DNA of 39,783 bases from an uncultured Bacteroidota bacterium (GTDB lineage Bacteria; Bacteroidota; Bacteroidia; Chitinophagales; Chitinophagaceae), in the NCBI GenBank assembly GCA_903887005.1, contig CAISOH010000421.1, positions 1-39,783 of the forward strand. The letters are read 5' to 3'. This document shows positions 27,306-31,960 of this stretch, piece by piece. The position numbers and the translations under genes were made by a program. Below the pieces are notes generated by a model. That model was not told where the DNA came from, made no database searches, and saw only the letters and a list, made by a program, of their open reading frames with translations. Within the stretch, counting starts at the first letter, position 1; the number at the start of each line of letters is the position of its first letter.

Positions 27306-27962
27306 ATGTATCAGCAAATGAAGTGGTTAGGGAAATGGGGCCGTAATCATATGTATCAGGCGCAGTTGATAATTGTTCTTTGTTATGCGCTATTGTTTGC
27401 ATTGTATCACTTTTACGGGCAGGTTTTGCAAGGCGGGGATATAAAGATACCCAAAGCATTGGTTTATGTTTGTCTTACTGTAGCTGCGGTAGTTTATACC
27501 GTCCACGAACTGGTACACAGGCATGTGTTTATTGGAAACAGGTTTGTTTTCCTCAAGCTTTCCTGCATGGTAATCCTTTCTTTTTCATTTTTTGGCTTAT
27601 TGGTAGTATCCACCCAGCCGGCCGGCACATTTCCGTTATATCAAGTCAAATCGTATGCAGCATATCCTGTCCCAAAAAAGTCTGGTATGGCGAATGCTTC
27701 GGGAATACTTAGTCATGAGGTGAAGCAAACAAACAAACCGTCAATTGGCGGACAGATTGCGCTAATTGCATTAGTGATTTTACTGTCTGCTTTGCTGGAG
27801 TTGGTGATTGCGGCATTATCTTGCTCGATAGCCTGCTCTGGCAATAGTTTTTTGGCTGTCGCAGTTTTAGTATTTGGAACTTCAGGTGTGGCTGTTCTTG
27901 CTGTTTACCTTATACGAAATATTTTGGGTAGGCCAAAACACCGAAATAGATGGCAGAACTAG
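27306..27962 (+). CDS. Membrane protein with four to five TM segments, unknown function
   Basis: The 218-residue protein has hydrophobic segments at about residues 20-38, 50-66, 80-100, 148-172 and 180-203, with a small periplasmic-type loop between the third and fourth. A 'VHELVHRHVF' segment near residue 65 contains HExxH, but it sits at a membrane edge and I do not treat it as proof of a protease. It is not a family I recognise. It stands alone between the DUF5329 gene and the transposon region. Confidence 0.7.
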   Translation: MYQQMKWLGKWGRNHMYQAQLIIVLCYALLFALYHFYGQVLQGGDIKIPKALVYVCLTVAAVVYTVHELVHRHVFIGNRFVFLKLSCMVILSFSFFGLLVVSTQPAGTFPLYQVKSYAAYPVPKKSGMANASGILSHEVKQTNKPSIGGQIALIALVILLSALLELVIAALSCSIACSGNSFLAVAVLVFGTSGVAVLAVYLIRNILGRPKHRNRWQN

Positions 27963-28409
27963 CGTACCAATCGCAATAACAAATTGTGTATCATCGTTGT
28001 TGCACTGAAATGACAATTGAAACTTCCATTACTGAAGTAAACTTTCAATCAGCAATTTTTACACCTTTGTCGTTGTAAATGGATTTTATGCATGTATCCA
28101 TACTCTATAAATGCCCCGGGAAGGGTACCATATGATTGTCTATGGCTGAAAGGTGCTTCTCCATTGAGATATGCACATAAAAAAACCTGATAATCAATTG
28201 ACTACCAGGTTTTTTAGTCGGGATGACTGGACATATTTCGAACGTGTTTATTAAGGACTTGATAGCGTTGCAAGCCTTAATGAGTAACATAGAGCATTTA
28301 TGGGTAAGAACAGTCTAATTCGTGCCTATTCGGGTATGGGTTGGCTGGACGATATTCGAACGGATTTGAATTTCTCGCTAACTTCATTGTAGTTCAAGAA
28401 TTAATTATC
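27963..28409. other. Left flank of the transposon-like gene with tRNA-like remnant
   Basis: The first 200 bp show no gene. At ~28181-28214 a hairpin AAAAAACCTG/CAGGTTTTTT lies directly before GTCGGGATGACTGG (28217-28230). That is the arrangement 'terminator then tRNA 3' end' seen on the minus strand at the intact tRNA-Pro 3 kb away. The T-loop heptamer TTCGAAC follows at 28237 and again at 28355, but the rest of a tRNA is absent. The open frame 28105-28290 (minus) runs through these structures and is probably not a gene. Confidence 0.5.
28181..28214 (-). terminator. Hairpin with A/T runs beside the tRNA-like remnant
   Basis: AAAAAACCTG and CAGGTTTTTT form a 10-bp stem around a loop that includes TAATCAATTGACTA. 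It could end transcription in either direction and probably served the tRNA whose 3' end remains at 28217-28230. Confidence 0.55.
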
Positions 28410-31116
28410 ATGCAAATTAGTGATGAAATTTTATCAGGCTTTATTAATTGCCAATATAAAGCCTATTTAATAAGCGAGAATAAAGCGGGAAGTATTTCTG
28501 AATACCAAATCCTTTATAATCAACTAAAGCAAAAACATAAAGCAAATTTTGAAAAAAATATTTCGAAGAACGAAACTCTGGTCTCGTCAAACTCTGTATT
28601 TGATAATATTATTTCGACTGCAGGAATCGCCTTAAATCTAAAATTTACAAACGCTAACATTGATCTGACGCTTGACGGAATTGAACTTAAAGGAAAGAAA
28701 AGCAGCATACCAATTTTTATCACACCATTTGAAAAAATTACTAAAACTGATAAGTTATTCCTTGCTTTACAGGTAACGCTAATCCAAAATGAATTTAGTC
28801 TACAGATTGAAAATTGCAAAATAGTTTCCGGAACAAATCTTAAGCAAACGAAATTTAAATTTTCATCTTTCGCAAAACCCATAAAGAAATTAATGAGTGA
28901 GATGAATAAACTTTTATTCAACTCAAAGCCTCCTGTATTCTTTAGGAACAGCCACTGCCAAGTTTGCGAATTTCAAAAAAGTTGCCTCGAAAAATTAATT
29001 GAGAGAGATGATTTAAGTCTTTTGTCTGGTATGAGTAAGAAAGAAATTGAGCAAAAAAATAATAAAGGATTATTTTCAGTAAAACAACTATCATATACCT
29101 TCCGTCCCAAAAAGAAATTAAACAGGAGAAGAAAATTCCTGCCTGAACTGAAAGCATATGCATTAAGAGAAAATAAGACTTTCATTCAAGACCTTCCTAT
29201 TTTCAAAGAAGTTACTACCGAATTGTATTTAGATTTTGAAGGACTTCCTGACCGATCTTTCAATTATTTAATTGGGTTAATAGTAAAGGATGAAAATCAA
29301 GAAAAAGAATATTCATTCTGGGCTGAAAATAAAAGTGAGGAAATAAAGATGTTCGTTGATTTATTAGATGTTATTGATAAGATTGATGACTATGCTATTT
29401 ACCATTTTGGGGCGTATGAAATACAAGTACTAAAAAGGATTTCTAAAAACCTCCCTGATAAATACCAGGAAGTAATAAAAACGGTCATTAATAAATCATT
29501 CAATATTCTAAACATATTCGCAAATAATGTTTACCCTCCCACATATTCAAATAGCTTAAAAGAAATTGCAAGGTATCTATCATTTAATTGGACGGAGGCA
29601 GATGCATCAGGTTTACAAAGTATTGTATGGAGATACCAATGGGAATCAACCGCCGACAAGGATGTGAAAGCTAAATTGATTACATACAATATTGAAGATT
29701 GCAGAGCTTTATTAATAATTAAAGATTGGGTAGCGCTAATTCCTAAAAATGATGATGATAATATTAGAAAAACCGAAAACATAAAGATTGATTCAATTAG
29801 AAAATGGGGTAAAGTTAACTTTCAAATTAAACAGCTTGAAAACATCAATAGCTGTGCATATTTTAATTATCAACGAGATAAAGTATTTGTTAAAACATAT
29901 CCTGAAATTGCCAAACAACAAAAGAAGTCAAGGCAAAAGAAACATTCAAAAAAATTAATTCCCAATAAAATAATAGAGCCAGAACGACCTAAAATTTGTC
30001 GAAAATGTAAAGGAAATAAATTTCTCAAACATGATAAACAACAGCACACAGTTATTGATTTGAAAATTGGAAAGACGTGCATCAAAAGACATATAATATT
30101 ATTTCATAATGATAGATACAGATGTACTCATTGCAGAACAATACATAACCCTGAAAATTTTATCAGAGGGAATAGTAAATATGGTTGGGATTTACAGTGC
30201 TGGATAATAAACCAGAATATTCAATATCGCATTAGTTTTAAAAAAATTGGGCTGCTATTAAAAGAAACATTTGATATTGATTTTCCTAATGTTGGTGTTC
30301 AAATTCGGTCAAAATTTTCCTTGTTTTATAAAACAACTTTCAAAGAAATATTTGACCAAATTAAAAGAAGTGCTTTAATTCATATTGATGAAACTACTTT
30401 CCATATTGGTAATGAGGTTGCCTATGTTTGGGTGTTTACCAATATAAACACCGTATATTACTTATTTAAACCAACAAGGGAAGCCGAATTTTTAAAAGAA
30501 CTGTTGTCTGAATTCAAAGGTGTATTAATTAGTGATTTTTATGCAGGATATGATGCGCTAACCTGTCCAAAACAAAGATGTTTAATTCATTTAATACGAA
30601 ATCTCAATGATGATTTAGTAAAGAATCAGTTGAATGTTGAGTTTCAAGTTATGGTTAATAATTTTTCAAAACTACTTAATGAAATAATATTGACAGTTAA
30701 TAAATTTGGTCTTAAAAAACGGCATCTTAATAAACATCATAAAATAGTTGATTTATTTTTTTCACAGCTTAAAGTAATAGAATTTGAAACTAATATATGT
30801 GAAACATGGAGAAAAAAATTTCTTTCTTATCAAAATGAATTGTTTACTTTTTTGAATTACGATGGTGTCCCTTGGAATAACAACAACGCCGAGGCTGCAA
30901 TAAAAGCAGTAGCCTTATATAGGAGAGATGTTGATGGACTGCCAACGCCAAATTCAATTCAAGAATATCTTGTTTTACTCAGCATTCAACAAACCTGTAG
31001 ATATAGGGGTATTAATTATTTTAAGTTTCTTCAATCCGCCAAAACAACCTTATCAAACTATTCTGAGGAACCGAGAAAAAATGCACCATTGTTGAATGTT
31101 GAAACTGGATTCGAAC
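28217..31116 (+). mobile_element. Transposon-like element at a tRNA T-arm (limits uncertain)
   Basis: The left side carries GTCGGGATGACTGGA (28217-28231), a tRNA 3' end up to the T-arm. The right side carries ACTGGATTCGAACC (31104-31117), the rest of a T-arm. The two share ACTGGA, as if an element had inserted into or beside a tRNA gene. No terminal inverted repeats were found by eye, so the limits are a guess. The cargo is the single 904-residue gene. Confidence 0.4.
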
Positions 31117-31124
31117 CAAGCTAA
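28410..31124 (+). CDS. Fusion of RecB/Cas4-like nuclease, DEDD exonuclease and IS66-like transposase
   Basis: I start at 28410 (904 aa); the longer frame begins with TTG at 28341 inside T-loop-like DNA. Residues ~1-200 resemble TM0106-type RecB nucleases: Cys14, and Cys183-x2-Cys186-x5-Cys192, the four-cysteine Fe-S pattern of Cas4/AddB-type nucleases. Residues ~270-445 look like a YprB-type DEDD exonuclease ('LYLDFEG' Asp275/Glu277, 'YHFGAYE', 'YNIEDC' Asp430). Residues ~530-880 are an IS66-like transposase: zinc finger CxxC at 530/533 and 572/575, then DDE residues Asp660 ('HIDET'), Asp709 ('ISDFYAGYD') and Glu828 ('NNNNAEAAIK'). The gene is clearly richer in A+T than its neighbours. IS66 TnpA/TnpB partners are absent. 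Confidence 0.85.
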   Translation: MQISDEILSGFINCQYKAYLISENKAGSISEYQILYNQLKQKHKANFEKNISKNETLVSSNSVFDNIISTAGIALNLKFTNANIDLTLDGIELKGKKSSIPIFITPFEKITKTDKLFLALQVTLIQNEFSLQIENCKIVSGTNLKQTKFKFSSFAKPIKKLMSEMNKLLFNSKPPVFFRNSHCQVCEFQKSCLEKLIERDDLSLLSGMSKKEIEQKNNKGLFSVKQLSYTFRPKKKLNRRRKFLPELKAYALRENKTFIQDLPIFKEVTTELYLDFEGLPDRSFNYLIGLIVKDENQEKEYSFWAENKSEEIKMFVDLLDVIDKIDDYAIYHFGAYEIQVLKRISKNLPDKYQEVIKTVINKSFNILNIFANNVYPPTYSNSLKEIARYLSFNWTEADASGLQSIVWRYQWESTADKDVKAKLITYNIEDCRALLIIKDWVALIPKNDDDNIRKTENIKIDSIRKWGKVNFQIKQLENINSCAYFNYQRDKVFVKTYPEIAKQQKKSRQKKHSKKLIPNKIIEPERPKICRKCKGNKFLKHDKQQHTVIDLKIGKTCIKRHIILFHNDRYRCTHCRTIHNPENFIRGNSKYGWDLQCWIINQNIQYRISFKKIGLLLKETFDIDFPNVGVQIRSKFSLFYKTTFKEIFDQIKRSALIHIDETTFHIGNEVAYVWVFTNINTVYYLFKPTREAEFLKELLSEFKGVLISDFYAGYDALTCPKQRCLIHLIRNLNDDLVKNQLNVEFQVMVNNFSKLLNEIILTVNKFGLKKRHLNKHHKIVDLFFSQLKVIEFETNICETWRKKFLSYQNELFTFLNYDGVPWNNNNAEAAIKAVALYRRDVDGLPTPNSIQEYLVLLSIQQTCRYRGINYFKFLQSAKTTLSNYSEEPRKNAPLLNVETGFEPS

Positions 31125-31183
31125 AACCTCTATAATCAAGGCTTTTACTAATTTATATGAAAATGCCATAATCATTTCGAACT

Positions 31184-31212
31184 AAAAACCCGCTACGAGA
31201 GCGGGTTTTTAA
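31184..31212 (-). terminator. Terminator of tRNA-Pro
   Basis: AAAAACCCGCT (31184-31194) and AGCGGGTTTTT (31200-31210) form a perfect 11-bp stem around ACGAG, just after the 3' end of the minus-strand tRNA. Confidence 0.85.
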
Positions 31213-31218
31213 TTTATG

Positions 31219-31292
31219 TCGGGAAGACAGGATTCGAACCTGCGACCACAAGACCCCCAGCCTTGTGCGCTACCGGGCTGCGCTACTTCCCG
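31219..31292 (-). tRNA. tRNA-Pro, anticodon GGG
   Basis: The minus strand folds into a full cloverleaf. The acceptor stem is CGGGAAG/CTTCCCG, the D stem GCGC/GCGC, and the anticodon stem CAAGG/TCTTG with loop CTGGGGG, so the anticodon is GGG. The T arm is CAGG-TTCGAAT-CCTG. The discriminator base is A, and CCA is not encoded. An intrinsic terminator follows. Confidence 0.93.
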
Positions 31293-31363
31293 AAAATCAT
31301 TAATAATAAAAACAAACTAACAATTTCCTTTTAAATGGGCTGCAAAGGTAATCTAAAAATCTT

Positions 31364-31960
31364 TTACGACAAATCTGTTGAAATAAGCTTTAAAAACTCG
31401 GAACGGGTTTCATTTTTCATAAACTGACCGCTGAATGCCGATGTGGTGGTAACACTGTTCTGTTTCTGCACGCCACGCTGCATCATACATAGATGCTGCG
31501 CCTCAATCACAACGCCTACACCCAGCGGATGCAGCGTTGCCTGTATCACATCCAGTATCTGGTGCGTCATCCGCTCCTGCACCTGCAGGCGGCGGGCGAA
31601 ACATTCCACCACATGGGCTATTTTGCTCAACCCTGTTATCCATCCGTCAGGTATGTACGCTATATGGGCCTTGCCAAAGAAGGGAAGCATATGGTGCTCG
31701 CACATCGAATACAGCTCTATATTTTTCACCAGCACCATTTCCTTATACGACTCATGAAATTTTGCGGAAAGCAATATTTCAGATGCATTCATATTATAAC
31801 CCTGCGTCATGAACTGCATCGCCTTTGCAATGCGTTCCGGGGTTTTCTGTAAGCCTTCTCTTTCAGGATTTTCACCGATAGCCGTTAAAACAGAACGATA
31901 TGCTGTCATAAGCTGATCAGTAGCTTCTTTGTCATAAACCTCTTTCTTGTGATAAGCCAA
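31364..31960 (-). CDS. folE: GTP cyclohydrolase I
   Basis: The 198-residue enzyme converts GTP to 7,8-dihydroneopterin triphosphate, the first step to folate and tetrahydropterins. Zinc ligands are visible as Cys87 and His90 in '[13 protein letters not shown]' and Cys158 in '[10 protein letters not shown]'; '[18 protein letters not shown]' is the conserved substrate-binding stretch. The length is normal for the family. The PTPS-type gene lies 64 bp upstream on the same strand, so the two may form a pterin operon read from the promoter at 32452-32482. Confidence 0.97.

What the first reader, a model, noticed from the sequence alone, without database searches (positions are those of the whole stretch)
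28410..31124. One polypeptide joins a Cas4/RecB-like nuclease, a DEDD exonuclease and an IS66-like DDE transposase
The sequence shows three enzyme signatures in one 904-residue frame. There is a four-cysteine Fe-S nuclease pattern (C14; C183-x2-C186-x5-C192), a DEDD exonuclease pattern (DFE, YHFGAYE, YNIEDC) and a full IS66-type DDE set with zinc finger (D660, D709, E828). Known IS66 elements use separate TnpA/TnpB/TnpC proteins and are thought to copy or paste without an attached end-processing nuclease. A fused nuclease suggests the element cuts or trims DNA ends itself, in the way TnsA complements TnsB in Tn7. All active residues look present, so the protein is probably functional rather than an accident of decay. 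Whether this architecture is already described I cannot tell; RecB-like TM0106 proteins are known, but I recall no characterised transposon of this build.
Basis: partly seen in the sequence, partly recalled or inferred. Interest (0 to 1): 0.85.

Follow-up and report, generated by a model that had tools for sequence, protein, structure and literature searches.

The report
Nuclease-transposase fusion carried as tRNA-integrated cassette
A single bacterial protein really does join a Cas4-like domain, a DNA-trimming exonuclease and an IS66-type transposase; the fusion recurs across many phyla, but here it sits alone in a 3-kb insert at the end of a tRNA gene, with an insert end shared by unrelated genes, so it looks like cargo rather than its own mover.

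Summary
One 904-aa frame (28410-31124) joins a TM0106/Cas4-like Fe-S domain, a DEDDy exonuclease and an IS66-type DDE transposase. It is no one-off: all 80 relatives fetched match across both halves. One claim fails: the RecB/Cas4 nuclease core is lost (present in 0 of 75 fused, 14 of 14 stand-alone), while exonuclease and DDE residues are conserved.

"Self-cutting transposon" is not supported: low copy, no shared terminal repeat, no near-identical copies in six genomes compared. In the window the gene sits alone in a 3,001-bp insert (28217-31217) at the 3' end of tRNA-Pro; a 15-nt tRNA-end copy lies on the far side, beside a terminator resembling the one directly after tRNA-Pro in a same-genus genome. 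The insert's ~145-bp left end also bounds unrelated genes, mostly in genomes without the fusion. Five other relatives lie between tRNA-end repeats and seven look like integron cassettes; AbiE genes recur.

Best reading: a conserved DNA-processing payload moved by tyrosine recombinases. Its activity is untested.

The parts
28217..31217 (.). 3,001-bp insert at the 3' end of tRNA-Pro carrying only the fused gene
   Evidence: tRNA-Pro 3'-end copy at 28217-28231 and the tRNA itself at 31218; terminator on the far side matches the one directly after tRNA-Pro in same-genus L178; left end recurs in other arrays
28217..28231 (-). displaced copy of the tRNA-Pro 3' end, matching 13 of 15 nt of 31218-31232
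28217..28360 (-). conserved ~145-bp left end, with a CTGGACA-nn-TTCGAA-like motif at each edge
   Evidence: same-genus matches, two more in L181; 14-row alignment, in which rows L172 and L175 are weak
28176..28214 (.). hairpin terminator next to the displaced tRNA end
   Evidence: 34 of 39 nt identical to the sequence directly following tRNA-Pro in L178; weaker (79% over 33 nt, E 0.007) in L179 and L180
28410..31124 (+). 904-aa TM0106/Cas4-like - DEDDy exonuclease - IS66 DDE fusion protein
28410..28994 (+). residues 1-195: Cas4/RecB-fold domain with the four Fe-S-type cysteines C14, C183, C186, C192; catalytic triad lost
29217..29732 (+). residues 270-441: DEDDy 3'-5' exonuclease-type domain (D275, E277, E337, Y426, D430)
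29991..30140 (+). residues 528-577: four-cysteine, probably zinc-binding, site before the transposase core
   Evidence: C530, C533, C572, C575 in 75 of 75
30336..31064 (+). residues 643-885: IS66-type DDE core (D660, D709, E828)
   Evidence: PF03050; 75 of 75 residues; Foldseek 6xgx
31104..31119 (-). T-arm-like copy TTGGTTCGAATCCAGT in the right end; it overlaps the last codons of the fusion ORF
   Evidence: same motif after tRNA-Pro in L181 and, in variant form, L207
31180..31214 (.). hairpin terminator between insert and tRNA-Pro
   Evidence: inverted repeat I17
31218..31292 (-). tRNA-Pro (anticodon ggg), the target gene
   Evidence: ARAGORN, Rfam RF00005

Best explanation
The fused gene is the sole cargo of a small insert that entered the 3' end of tRNA-Pro by site-specific recombination, most likely by a tyrosine integrase acting in trans (inferred; such an integrase sits next to the same tRNA in a same-genus genome). 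Shown: tRNA-end repeat, displaced terminator, and a left end shared with inserts carrying other genes. The protein is a conserved payload in tRNA-anchored and integron-like cassettes, several times beside toxin-antitoxin or abortive-infection genes. Inferred mechanism of the protein: the Cas4-like domain binds a DNA end without cutting it, the DEDDy domain trims 3' ends, and the IS66 DDE domain cuts or strand-transfers that DNA; the likeliest role is action on foreign or damaged DNA rather than moving its own gene.
For: Insert anatomy: 15-nt tRNA-Pro end repeat, 13 of 15; terminator left of 28217 is 34 of 39 identical to that directly after tRNA-Pro in L178. Left end: 12 places in 10 of 35 same-genus genomes; one of these (G833) is a tRNA-Pro end itself and is dropped, while G847, missed there, has two, leaving 10 genomes. 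Fusion relatives occur in 3 of 35; 8 of the 10 site-bearing genomes show none. In L181 two such ends bound a 201-aa gene and a 507-aa WG-repeat gene; in L170 the left end bounds a DUF2442/DUF4160 pair. A tRNA-Pro lies in the held stretch of 4 of the 9 further site loci fetched (L202, L206, L207, L209). Integrase beside tRNA-Pro in L179; a 49-aa remnant 69% identical to it in the window's genome on contig C309, where a tRNA-Pro-like hit also lies. Relatives: repeats of a tRNA 3' end or its flank on both sides in L031 and L074 (22 of 22 nt), L036, L042, L070 (32-47 nt); direct-repeat score 16 or more in 7 of 81 loci against 0 of 324 swapped pairs (the other four are L014 attC-like, L017 gene end, L053 genomic REP, L078 unexplained). 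Probable integron cassettes: L006, L007, L009, L010, L014, L018, L027, with an integron-like integrase beside L006. AbiEii beside the fusion in L004 and in the same insert in L031; AbiEi-type (DUF6088) plus AbiEii in L006-L010. Low copy and purifying selection.
Against: The payload's biochemical role is not shown by any data here. For 67 of the 80 loci (80 less 5 tRNA, 7 integron-like, 1 gene-end case) no ends were identified, so cassette carriage is shown for a minority. The two tRNA-Glu inserts (L036, L042, one MAG) both carry the fusion, so cargo-independence is not shown there. The window's own repeat is short with 2 mismatches (13 of 16 against a best of 11 of 16 in one shuffle). The terminator match is to a palindromic hairpin. 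Support for attC is mixed: upstream hairpins beat at least 97% of shuffles in L005, L006, L007, L009 and L010, but not in L014 or L018, nor do the 3' sites of L027 and L009; L006 was examined at its 5' side only. Five of the 9 further left-end loci have no tRNA in the held stretch. No close full-length homologue of the L179 integrase in the window's genome (two distant ones, 29-30%).
Confidence: 0.62

Rival explanations
1. Autonomous transposon: the DDE domain moves its own gene and the nuclease parts process its ends.
For: DDE triad in 75 of 75; patchy distribution (2 of 395 genomes in a phylum sample) with wide spread; inserts in the window, L036 and L042 hold only this gene as far as ORF calls show.
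Against: No shared inverted repeats; no near-identical copies in the six genomes compared; repeats are tRNA-end copies of 15-47 nt, not a fixed short target duplication; left end shared with unrelated cargo; RecB core lost.
Confidence: 0.15
2. A selfish or homing-type gene that uses its DDE and exonuclease domains to copy itself into hot spots such as attC sites and tRNA genes, with very degenerate end requirements.
For: Repeated presence at tRNA 3' ends and attC-like sites; fusion-only inserts at tRNA-Glu in one MAG.
Against: Site-specific recombinase signatures explain both site types; PMC4383910 (passages read) states that only tyrosine-family integrases are known to target tRNA genes; the left end exists in genomes without a detected fusion.
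Confidence: 0.15
3. A host-domesticated DNA repair or end-processing enzyme that merely sits in variable regions.
For: Purifying selection; stand-alone TM0106 relatives occur once per genome, and COG2251 frequently carries AAA domains (PMC3985635, passages read).
Against: Patchy distribution: 3 of 35 in the genus, 2 of 395 in the phylum sample; repeated location in mobile cassettes.
Confidence: 0.06
4. Chance joining of two genes or an assembly artefact.
For: None found.
Against: 79 of 81 loci carry one ORF of at least 700 aa and all 80 relatives match across both halves; co-variation of halves.
Confidence: 0.01

Closest known systems
TM0106 / COG2251 RecB-like nuclease (TIGR03491)
   Same: Cas4-like domain with Fe-S-type cysteines followed by RNase_H_2 DEDDy domain; 202.9 bits against cut-off 97.45
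   Different: PD-(D/E)XK triad lost (0 of 75 against 14 of 14), the VDL aspartate replaced by N365 (75 of 75 N; 14 of 14 D in stand-alone); an IS66 transposase where COG2251 frequently has AAA domains (PMC3985635, passages)
IS66 family transposase (TnpC; PF03050, NF033517)
   Same: DDE core and cysteine site; Pfam above cut-off
   Different: NF033517 below its curated cut-off; no consistent terminal repeats, no recurrent TnpB neighbour among the families shown, nuclease module fused at the N-terminus
tRNA-integrated genomic islands (Islander definition, PMC4383910, passages read)
   Same: Regenerated tRNA, displaced tRNA fragment, insert between them
   Different: Only 3.0 kb, one gene, no integrase on board; Islander rejects candidates without an integrase
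Integron gene cassettes
   Same: Some relatives look like cassettes with GTT...AAC ends and attC-like hairpins
   Different: Window copy uses tRNA-Pro ends, not attC
CRISPR adaptation module (Cas4, DnaQ-type trimming, Cas1 integrase; roles recalled)
   Same: Analogous trio of folds: Cas4-like, DnaQ-like exonuclease, integrase; Foldseek hits Cas4-Cas1-Cas2 chains (E from 3.2e-5) and, weakly, a Streptococcus thermophilus DnaQ domain (E 0.014)
   Different: Integrase is a DDE RNase H fold, not Cas1; one chain; no CRISPR array was looked for; analogy only

Membership tests
IS66 family | DDE catalytic triad of the IS66 core | tested here: met
   D660, D709, E828 in 75 of 75; PF03050 86.7 bits against 23.1
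IS66 family | Score above the NCBIfam IS66 equivalog cut-off | tested here: not met
   159.9 bits against 180
IS66 family | Terminal inverted repeats bounding the element | tested here: not met
   Score 12 or more in 4 of 79 loci against 7 of 316 controls; 13 or more in 2 of 79 (one is the L053 REP) against 1 of 316; none in the window
IS66 family | Accompanying TnpA/TnpB genes (recalled: some subgroups such as ISBst12 lack them) | tested here: inconclusive
   No TnpB family among the families matched by two or more of 117 nearest ORFs; only 25 of 118 families were shown, ordered by member count
IS66 family | Fixed-length target duplication (8 bp, recalled) | not tested
   Transposon ends could not be defined
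TM0106 family RecB-like nuclease | TIGR03491 profile above cut-off | tested here: met
   202.9 against 97.45 bits
TM0106 family RecB-like nuclease | PD-(D/E)XK catalytic residues | tested here: not met
   0 of 75 fused against 14 of 14 stand-alone
TM0106 family RecB-like nuclease | Fe-S-type cysteines | tested here: met
   C183, C186, C192 in 75 of 75; C14 in 70 of 75, 4 gaps
TM0106 family RecB-like nuclease | DEDDy exonuclease residues | tested here: met
   D275, E277, Y426, D430 in 75 of 75; position 337 E in 68 and D in 7 of 75
tRNA-integrated genomic island | tRNA gene and displaced tRNA fragment flank the insert | tested here: met
   the fragment is short (13 of 15 nt)
tRNA-integrated genomic island | Integrase gene on board | tested here: not met
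   Of ORFs of 100 aa or more, only the fusion and a 133-aa minus-strand frame inside it lie in 28217-31217
Integron cassette (relatives only) | Complementary R'/R'' ends and attC hairpin | tested here: inconclusive
   Clear in L007 (score 19.5 against control maximum 16); L009, and L039 which I do not count, equal the control maximum; hairpin z-scores mixed

The most novel reading that the evidence does not exclude
The protein is a single-chain 'bind, trim, insert' machine: a cutting-dead Cas4-like domain holds a DNA end, the DnaQ-like domain trims it to size, and the IS66 DDE domain joins it to a target, analogous in folds to Cas4-DnaQ-Cas1 spacer acquisition but evolved on a DDE transposase. 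It would capture foreign DNA fragments, or help load cassettes, without needing terminal repeats.
Probability: 0.12. Interest if true: 0.92.

Novelty: new variant of a known kind. Interest (0 to 1): 0.6.

Why it matters
A transposase joined to an exonuclease and a Cas4-like domain, conserved with intact exonuclease and DDE residues across many phyla, is described in no title or abstract start listed by the searches. Its repeated carriage in recombinase-type cassettes, several times next to abortive-infection genes, suggests a mobile DNA-processing or defence activity that is directly testable. The same-genus tRNA-Pro arrays with a shared end and varied cargo may be a small integrase-less cassette system of a kind that island finders requiring an integrase would filter out.

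Tried and rejected
Transposon ends: ungapped inverted-repeat scans near the gene gave at most a slight excess over controls; the 24-bp perfect repeat around L053 occurs 118 times (up to 2 mismatches) in that genome and is a REP-like sequence. Integron scan with shuffled controls singled out only L007 clearly. Rfam gave no family at gathering score for the suspected group II intron fragments in L008, L010 and L018 and only sub-threshold matches besides the tRNA in window 27800-31500, so the intron reading is unverified. No folding signal for the left end in the window (z -0.90). ARAGORN on the 80 loci found a tRNA in 9, so a nearby tRNA is not general; of 8 such loci tested for a displaced 22-nt end, 3 had exact copies (L004, one side only; L031; L074) and 5 did not. 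Burkholderiaceae copies: 2 of 398 genomes, too few to define ends. Viral contigs: 9 pattern matches, none confirmed; phage records: one IS66-only match. Solved-structure sequence search: none. Defence-library scan of the 117 nearest ORFs showed AbiEi five times and other listed systems once or twice; no background rate was computed. Rows dropped: of 79 ORF-based rows plus the window, 75 went into the final alignment; L026, L037, L046, L050, L082 were left out as duplicates, partial or from another search.
Full report
Observation. A longer frame starts at a TTG at 28341; many relatives align from the ATG. Profiles give TIGR03491 (TM0106 RecB-like) at 4-440 and IS66 at 504-877, RNase_H_2 at 272-441 and DDE_Tnp_IS66 at 643-841. 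The AlphaFold model has mean pLDDT 88.1 and pTM 0.59. Foldseek's six PDB matches with E at or below 0.001 are the ISCth4 transposase and Cas4-Cas1-Cas2 chains; DnaQ-type and PolB exonucleases follow at E 0.014-0.03.

The fusion recurs. A pattern scan of bacterial and archaeal genomes gave 186 stretches encoding a relative, of which the best 80 were kept, at 31-68% identity, in Bacteroidota, Cyanobacteria, Acidobacteria, Verrucomicrobia, Planctomycetes, Nitrospirae, Proteobacteria and others as named in the record titles (many are MAGs, so the hosts of single contigs may be mis-binned). The other 106 were not seen, so whether they are fused is unknown. All 80 match across both halves. With one more, 79 of 81 loci have a single ORF of at least 700 aa; L055 and L058 are interrupted. 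L025 and L026 are identical, and L045 and L046 93% alike. Two plasmid records carry near full-length relatives, one annotated as TM0106 nuclease and one as IS66 transposase. No viral contig was confirmed and the one phage-record match is IS66 only.

Active sites. In 75 aligned fusion proteins the DDE triad, four cysteines of the zinc-type site, D275, E277, Y426, D430, C183, C186 and C192 are invariant; position 337 is E in 68 and D in 7. In the earlier, larger alignment of 80 rows D660 is D in 79. The PD-(D/E)XK triad is present in 0 of 75 fused proteins but in 14 of 14 stand-alone TM0106 proteins, and the stand-alone VDL aspartate is N365 in 75 of 75. So the Cas4-like domain probably binds rather than cuts. 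Identity of the exonuclease part tracks that of the IS66 part (r 0.85, 0 of 999 permutations). dN/dS is 0.05-0.29 in 11 of the 12 computable estimates; the N-terminal domain of L051/L068 gives 0.53, and three were not computable.

Not a typical insertion sequence. Of 34 carrier genomes searched (35 asked for, one not held), 23 have one match and 11 have two to six, some of them fragments. In six of the 11 multi-copy genomes I compared copies: none are more than 76% identical over any stretch longer than 110 nt (one of the three G399 matches was not included). Inverted repeats show at most a slight excess over swapped-flank controls (4 of 79 against 7 of 316 at score 12). In the window's genome there is one copy, in its genus 3 of 35 genomes, in a phylum sample 2 of 395.

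What the window holds. The gene ends 94 nt from the 3' end of tRNA-Pro(ggg), next to folE. Of 40 relatives, 37 match the tRNA-Pro/folE segment, and in the six fetched for that purpose tRNA-Pro lies beside folE. The first 15 nt of the tRNA 3' end recur at 28217 with two mismatches. To the left of that copy lies a hairpin terminator; in same-genus L178 a 34-of-39 match to it directly follows tRNA-Pro, with weaker matches in L179 and L180. This is the known signature of insertion at a tRNA 3' end, with the tRNA regenerated and a displaced fragment on the far side (PMC4383910, passages read). The insert is 28217-31217, 3,001 bp.

Shared end. The insert's ~145-bp left end was matched at 12 places in 10 of 35 same-genus genomes. 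One of them, in G833, is the tRNA-Pro end itself and is dropped; G847 was missed there but carries two copies. Of the resulting 10 genomes, 8 show no fusion gene at E 1e-20. Four of the other 11 matches cover 60 nt or less; the sequences around these four were aligned over the whole end, with divergence in the middle (L205, L206, L207, L209). A tRNA-Pro isoacceptor (ggg, tgg or cgg) lies in the held stretch of 4 of the 9 further loci fetched and in none of the other 5; it also lies in L170 and L181. L181 is a tandem array: tRNA-Pro, a 201-aa gene, left end, a 507-aa WG-repeat gene, left end. In L170 the left end bounds a DUF2442/DUF4160 pair. On the right, a T-arm copy TTGGTTCGAATCCAGT occurs in the window and L181 and in variant form in L207; the other tRNA-Pro flanks listed show it less clearly or not at all. 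In the window it encodes part of the fusion's last, low-confidence residues (pLDDT about 31). An end shared with unrelated cargo argues that the fusion is cargo here. A tyrosine integrase with an arm-binding domain lies beside tRNA-Pro in L179; the window's genome has only a 49-aa close remnant and two distant relatives (29-30% identity), so the acting integrase is inferred.

Other relatives. Five of the 80 loci have repeats of a tRNA 3' end or its immediate flank on both sides of the fusion: L031 (tRNA-Gly), L074 (tRNA-Asn), L036 and L042 (tRNA-Glu, one MAG), L070 (tRNA-like 32-nt repeat, integrase adjacent). L004 has two extra tRNA-Met ends on one side only; five other loci with a nearby tRNA showed no displaced end. 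L017 has a 143-bp duplication of the 3' end of its upstream Mg-chelatase-type neighbour. Seven loci look like integron cassettes (L006, L007, L009, L010, L014, L018, L027), with hairpin support in some and not in others and L006 seen at its 5' side only; beside L006 lies a tyrosine recombinase that matches integron-integrase models below their cut-offs, and an IS91 transposase. AbiEii lies beside the fusion in L004 and in the same tRNA-Gly insert in L031; an AbiEi-type DUF6088 gene and AbiEii follow the fusion in L006-L010. L006, L008, L009 and L007, L010 are related groups, so these are about four cases. For 67 of the 80 loci no ends were identified.

How it probably works. Shown: a conserved protein with intact exonuclease and DDE residues and a degenerate Cas4-like core, carried in a tRNA-anchored insert whose left end serves other genes. 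Inferred: mobilisation in trans by a tyrosine recombinase; the protein binds DNA ends, trims 3' strands and cuts or joins DNA, most plausibly acting on foreign DNA. No activity has been measured.

Novelty. Searches for IS66 with RecB or TM0106, IS66 with fused nuclease domain, TM0106 alone and IS66 with Cas4 and RNase H-like listed no title or abstract start describing the fusion; the library is open-access only. PMC3985635 (passages) treats COG2251 and IS66 as separate RNase H-like families and notes AAA domains as frequent in COG2251; the passages read do not mention this fusion. Nothing listed describes tRNA-anchored cassette arrays of this kind. Family annotation already names such proteins by one half or the other, so the fusion is uncharacterised rather than unseen.

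Noticed in passing
L170:4152-4227: Second tRNA-Pro copy beside the real one with a four-base anticodon call (gggg), apparently a degenerate duplicate inside a tandem insert array.
   Followed up: partly
L006:474-2521: IS91-family transposase next to a tyrosine recombinase resembling integron integrase, on the other side of an attC-like hairpin from the fusion gene.
   Followed up: partly
L008:7530-7585, L010:4957-5054, L018:4178-4278: Similar sequence directly after the cassette 3' core (GGTAA/GCATAA), reminiscent of group II intron ends inserted at attC; Rfam gave no match.
   Followed up: partly
L053:2432-2455 and genome of L053: A 24-nt motif occurs 118 times (two mismatches allowed) in this Verrucomicrobia genome and in 5 of 9 other genomes tested: a REP-like family.
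   Followed up: yes
L219 (G397) and G877:C221, C218: Fusion genes split into N- and C-terminal frames or cut at contig ends, suggesting decay or broken assembly in some genomes.
   Followed up: no
L036, L042 (MAG labelled Shewanella): Diverged fusion genes between repeats of the same tRNA-Glu 3' end; contig ends overlap, suggesting a tandem array.
   Followed up: partly
L014 (MAG labelled Thermoplasmatota archaeon): Short contig with the fusion gene between integron-like ends; the archaeal label may be a binning error.
   Followed up: no
L017:5588-5730: 143-bp duplicate of the upstream Mg-chelatase-type gene's 3' end beyond the fusion gene and a Gp49-type toxin-like gene, suggesting insertion into a protein-coding 3' end.
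   Followed up: partly
L002 flanks (-20 and just after the conserved end): Perfect 12-bp inverted repeat GTTATTTTTTTC tightly around the closest relative's gene; AT-rich and within the range of the controls.
   Followed up: no
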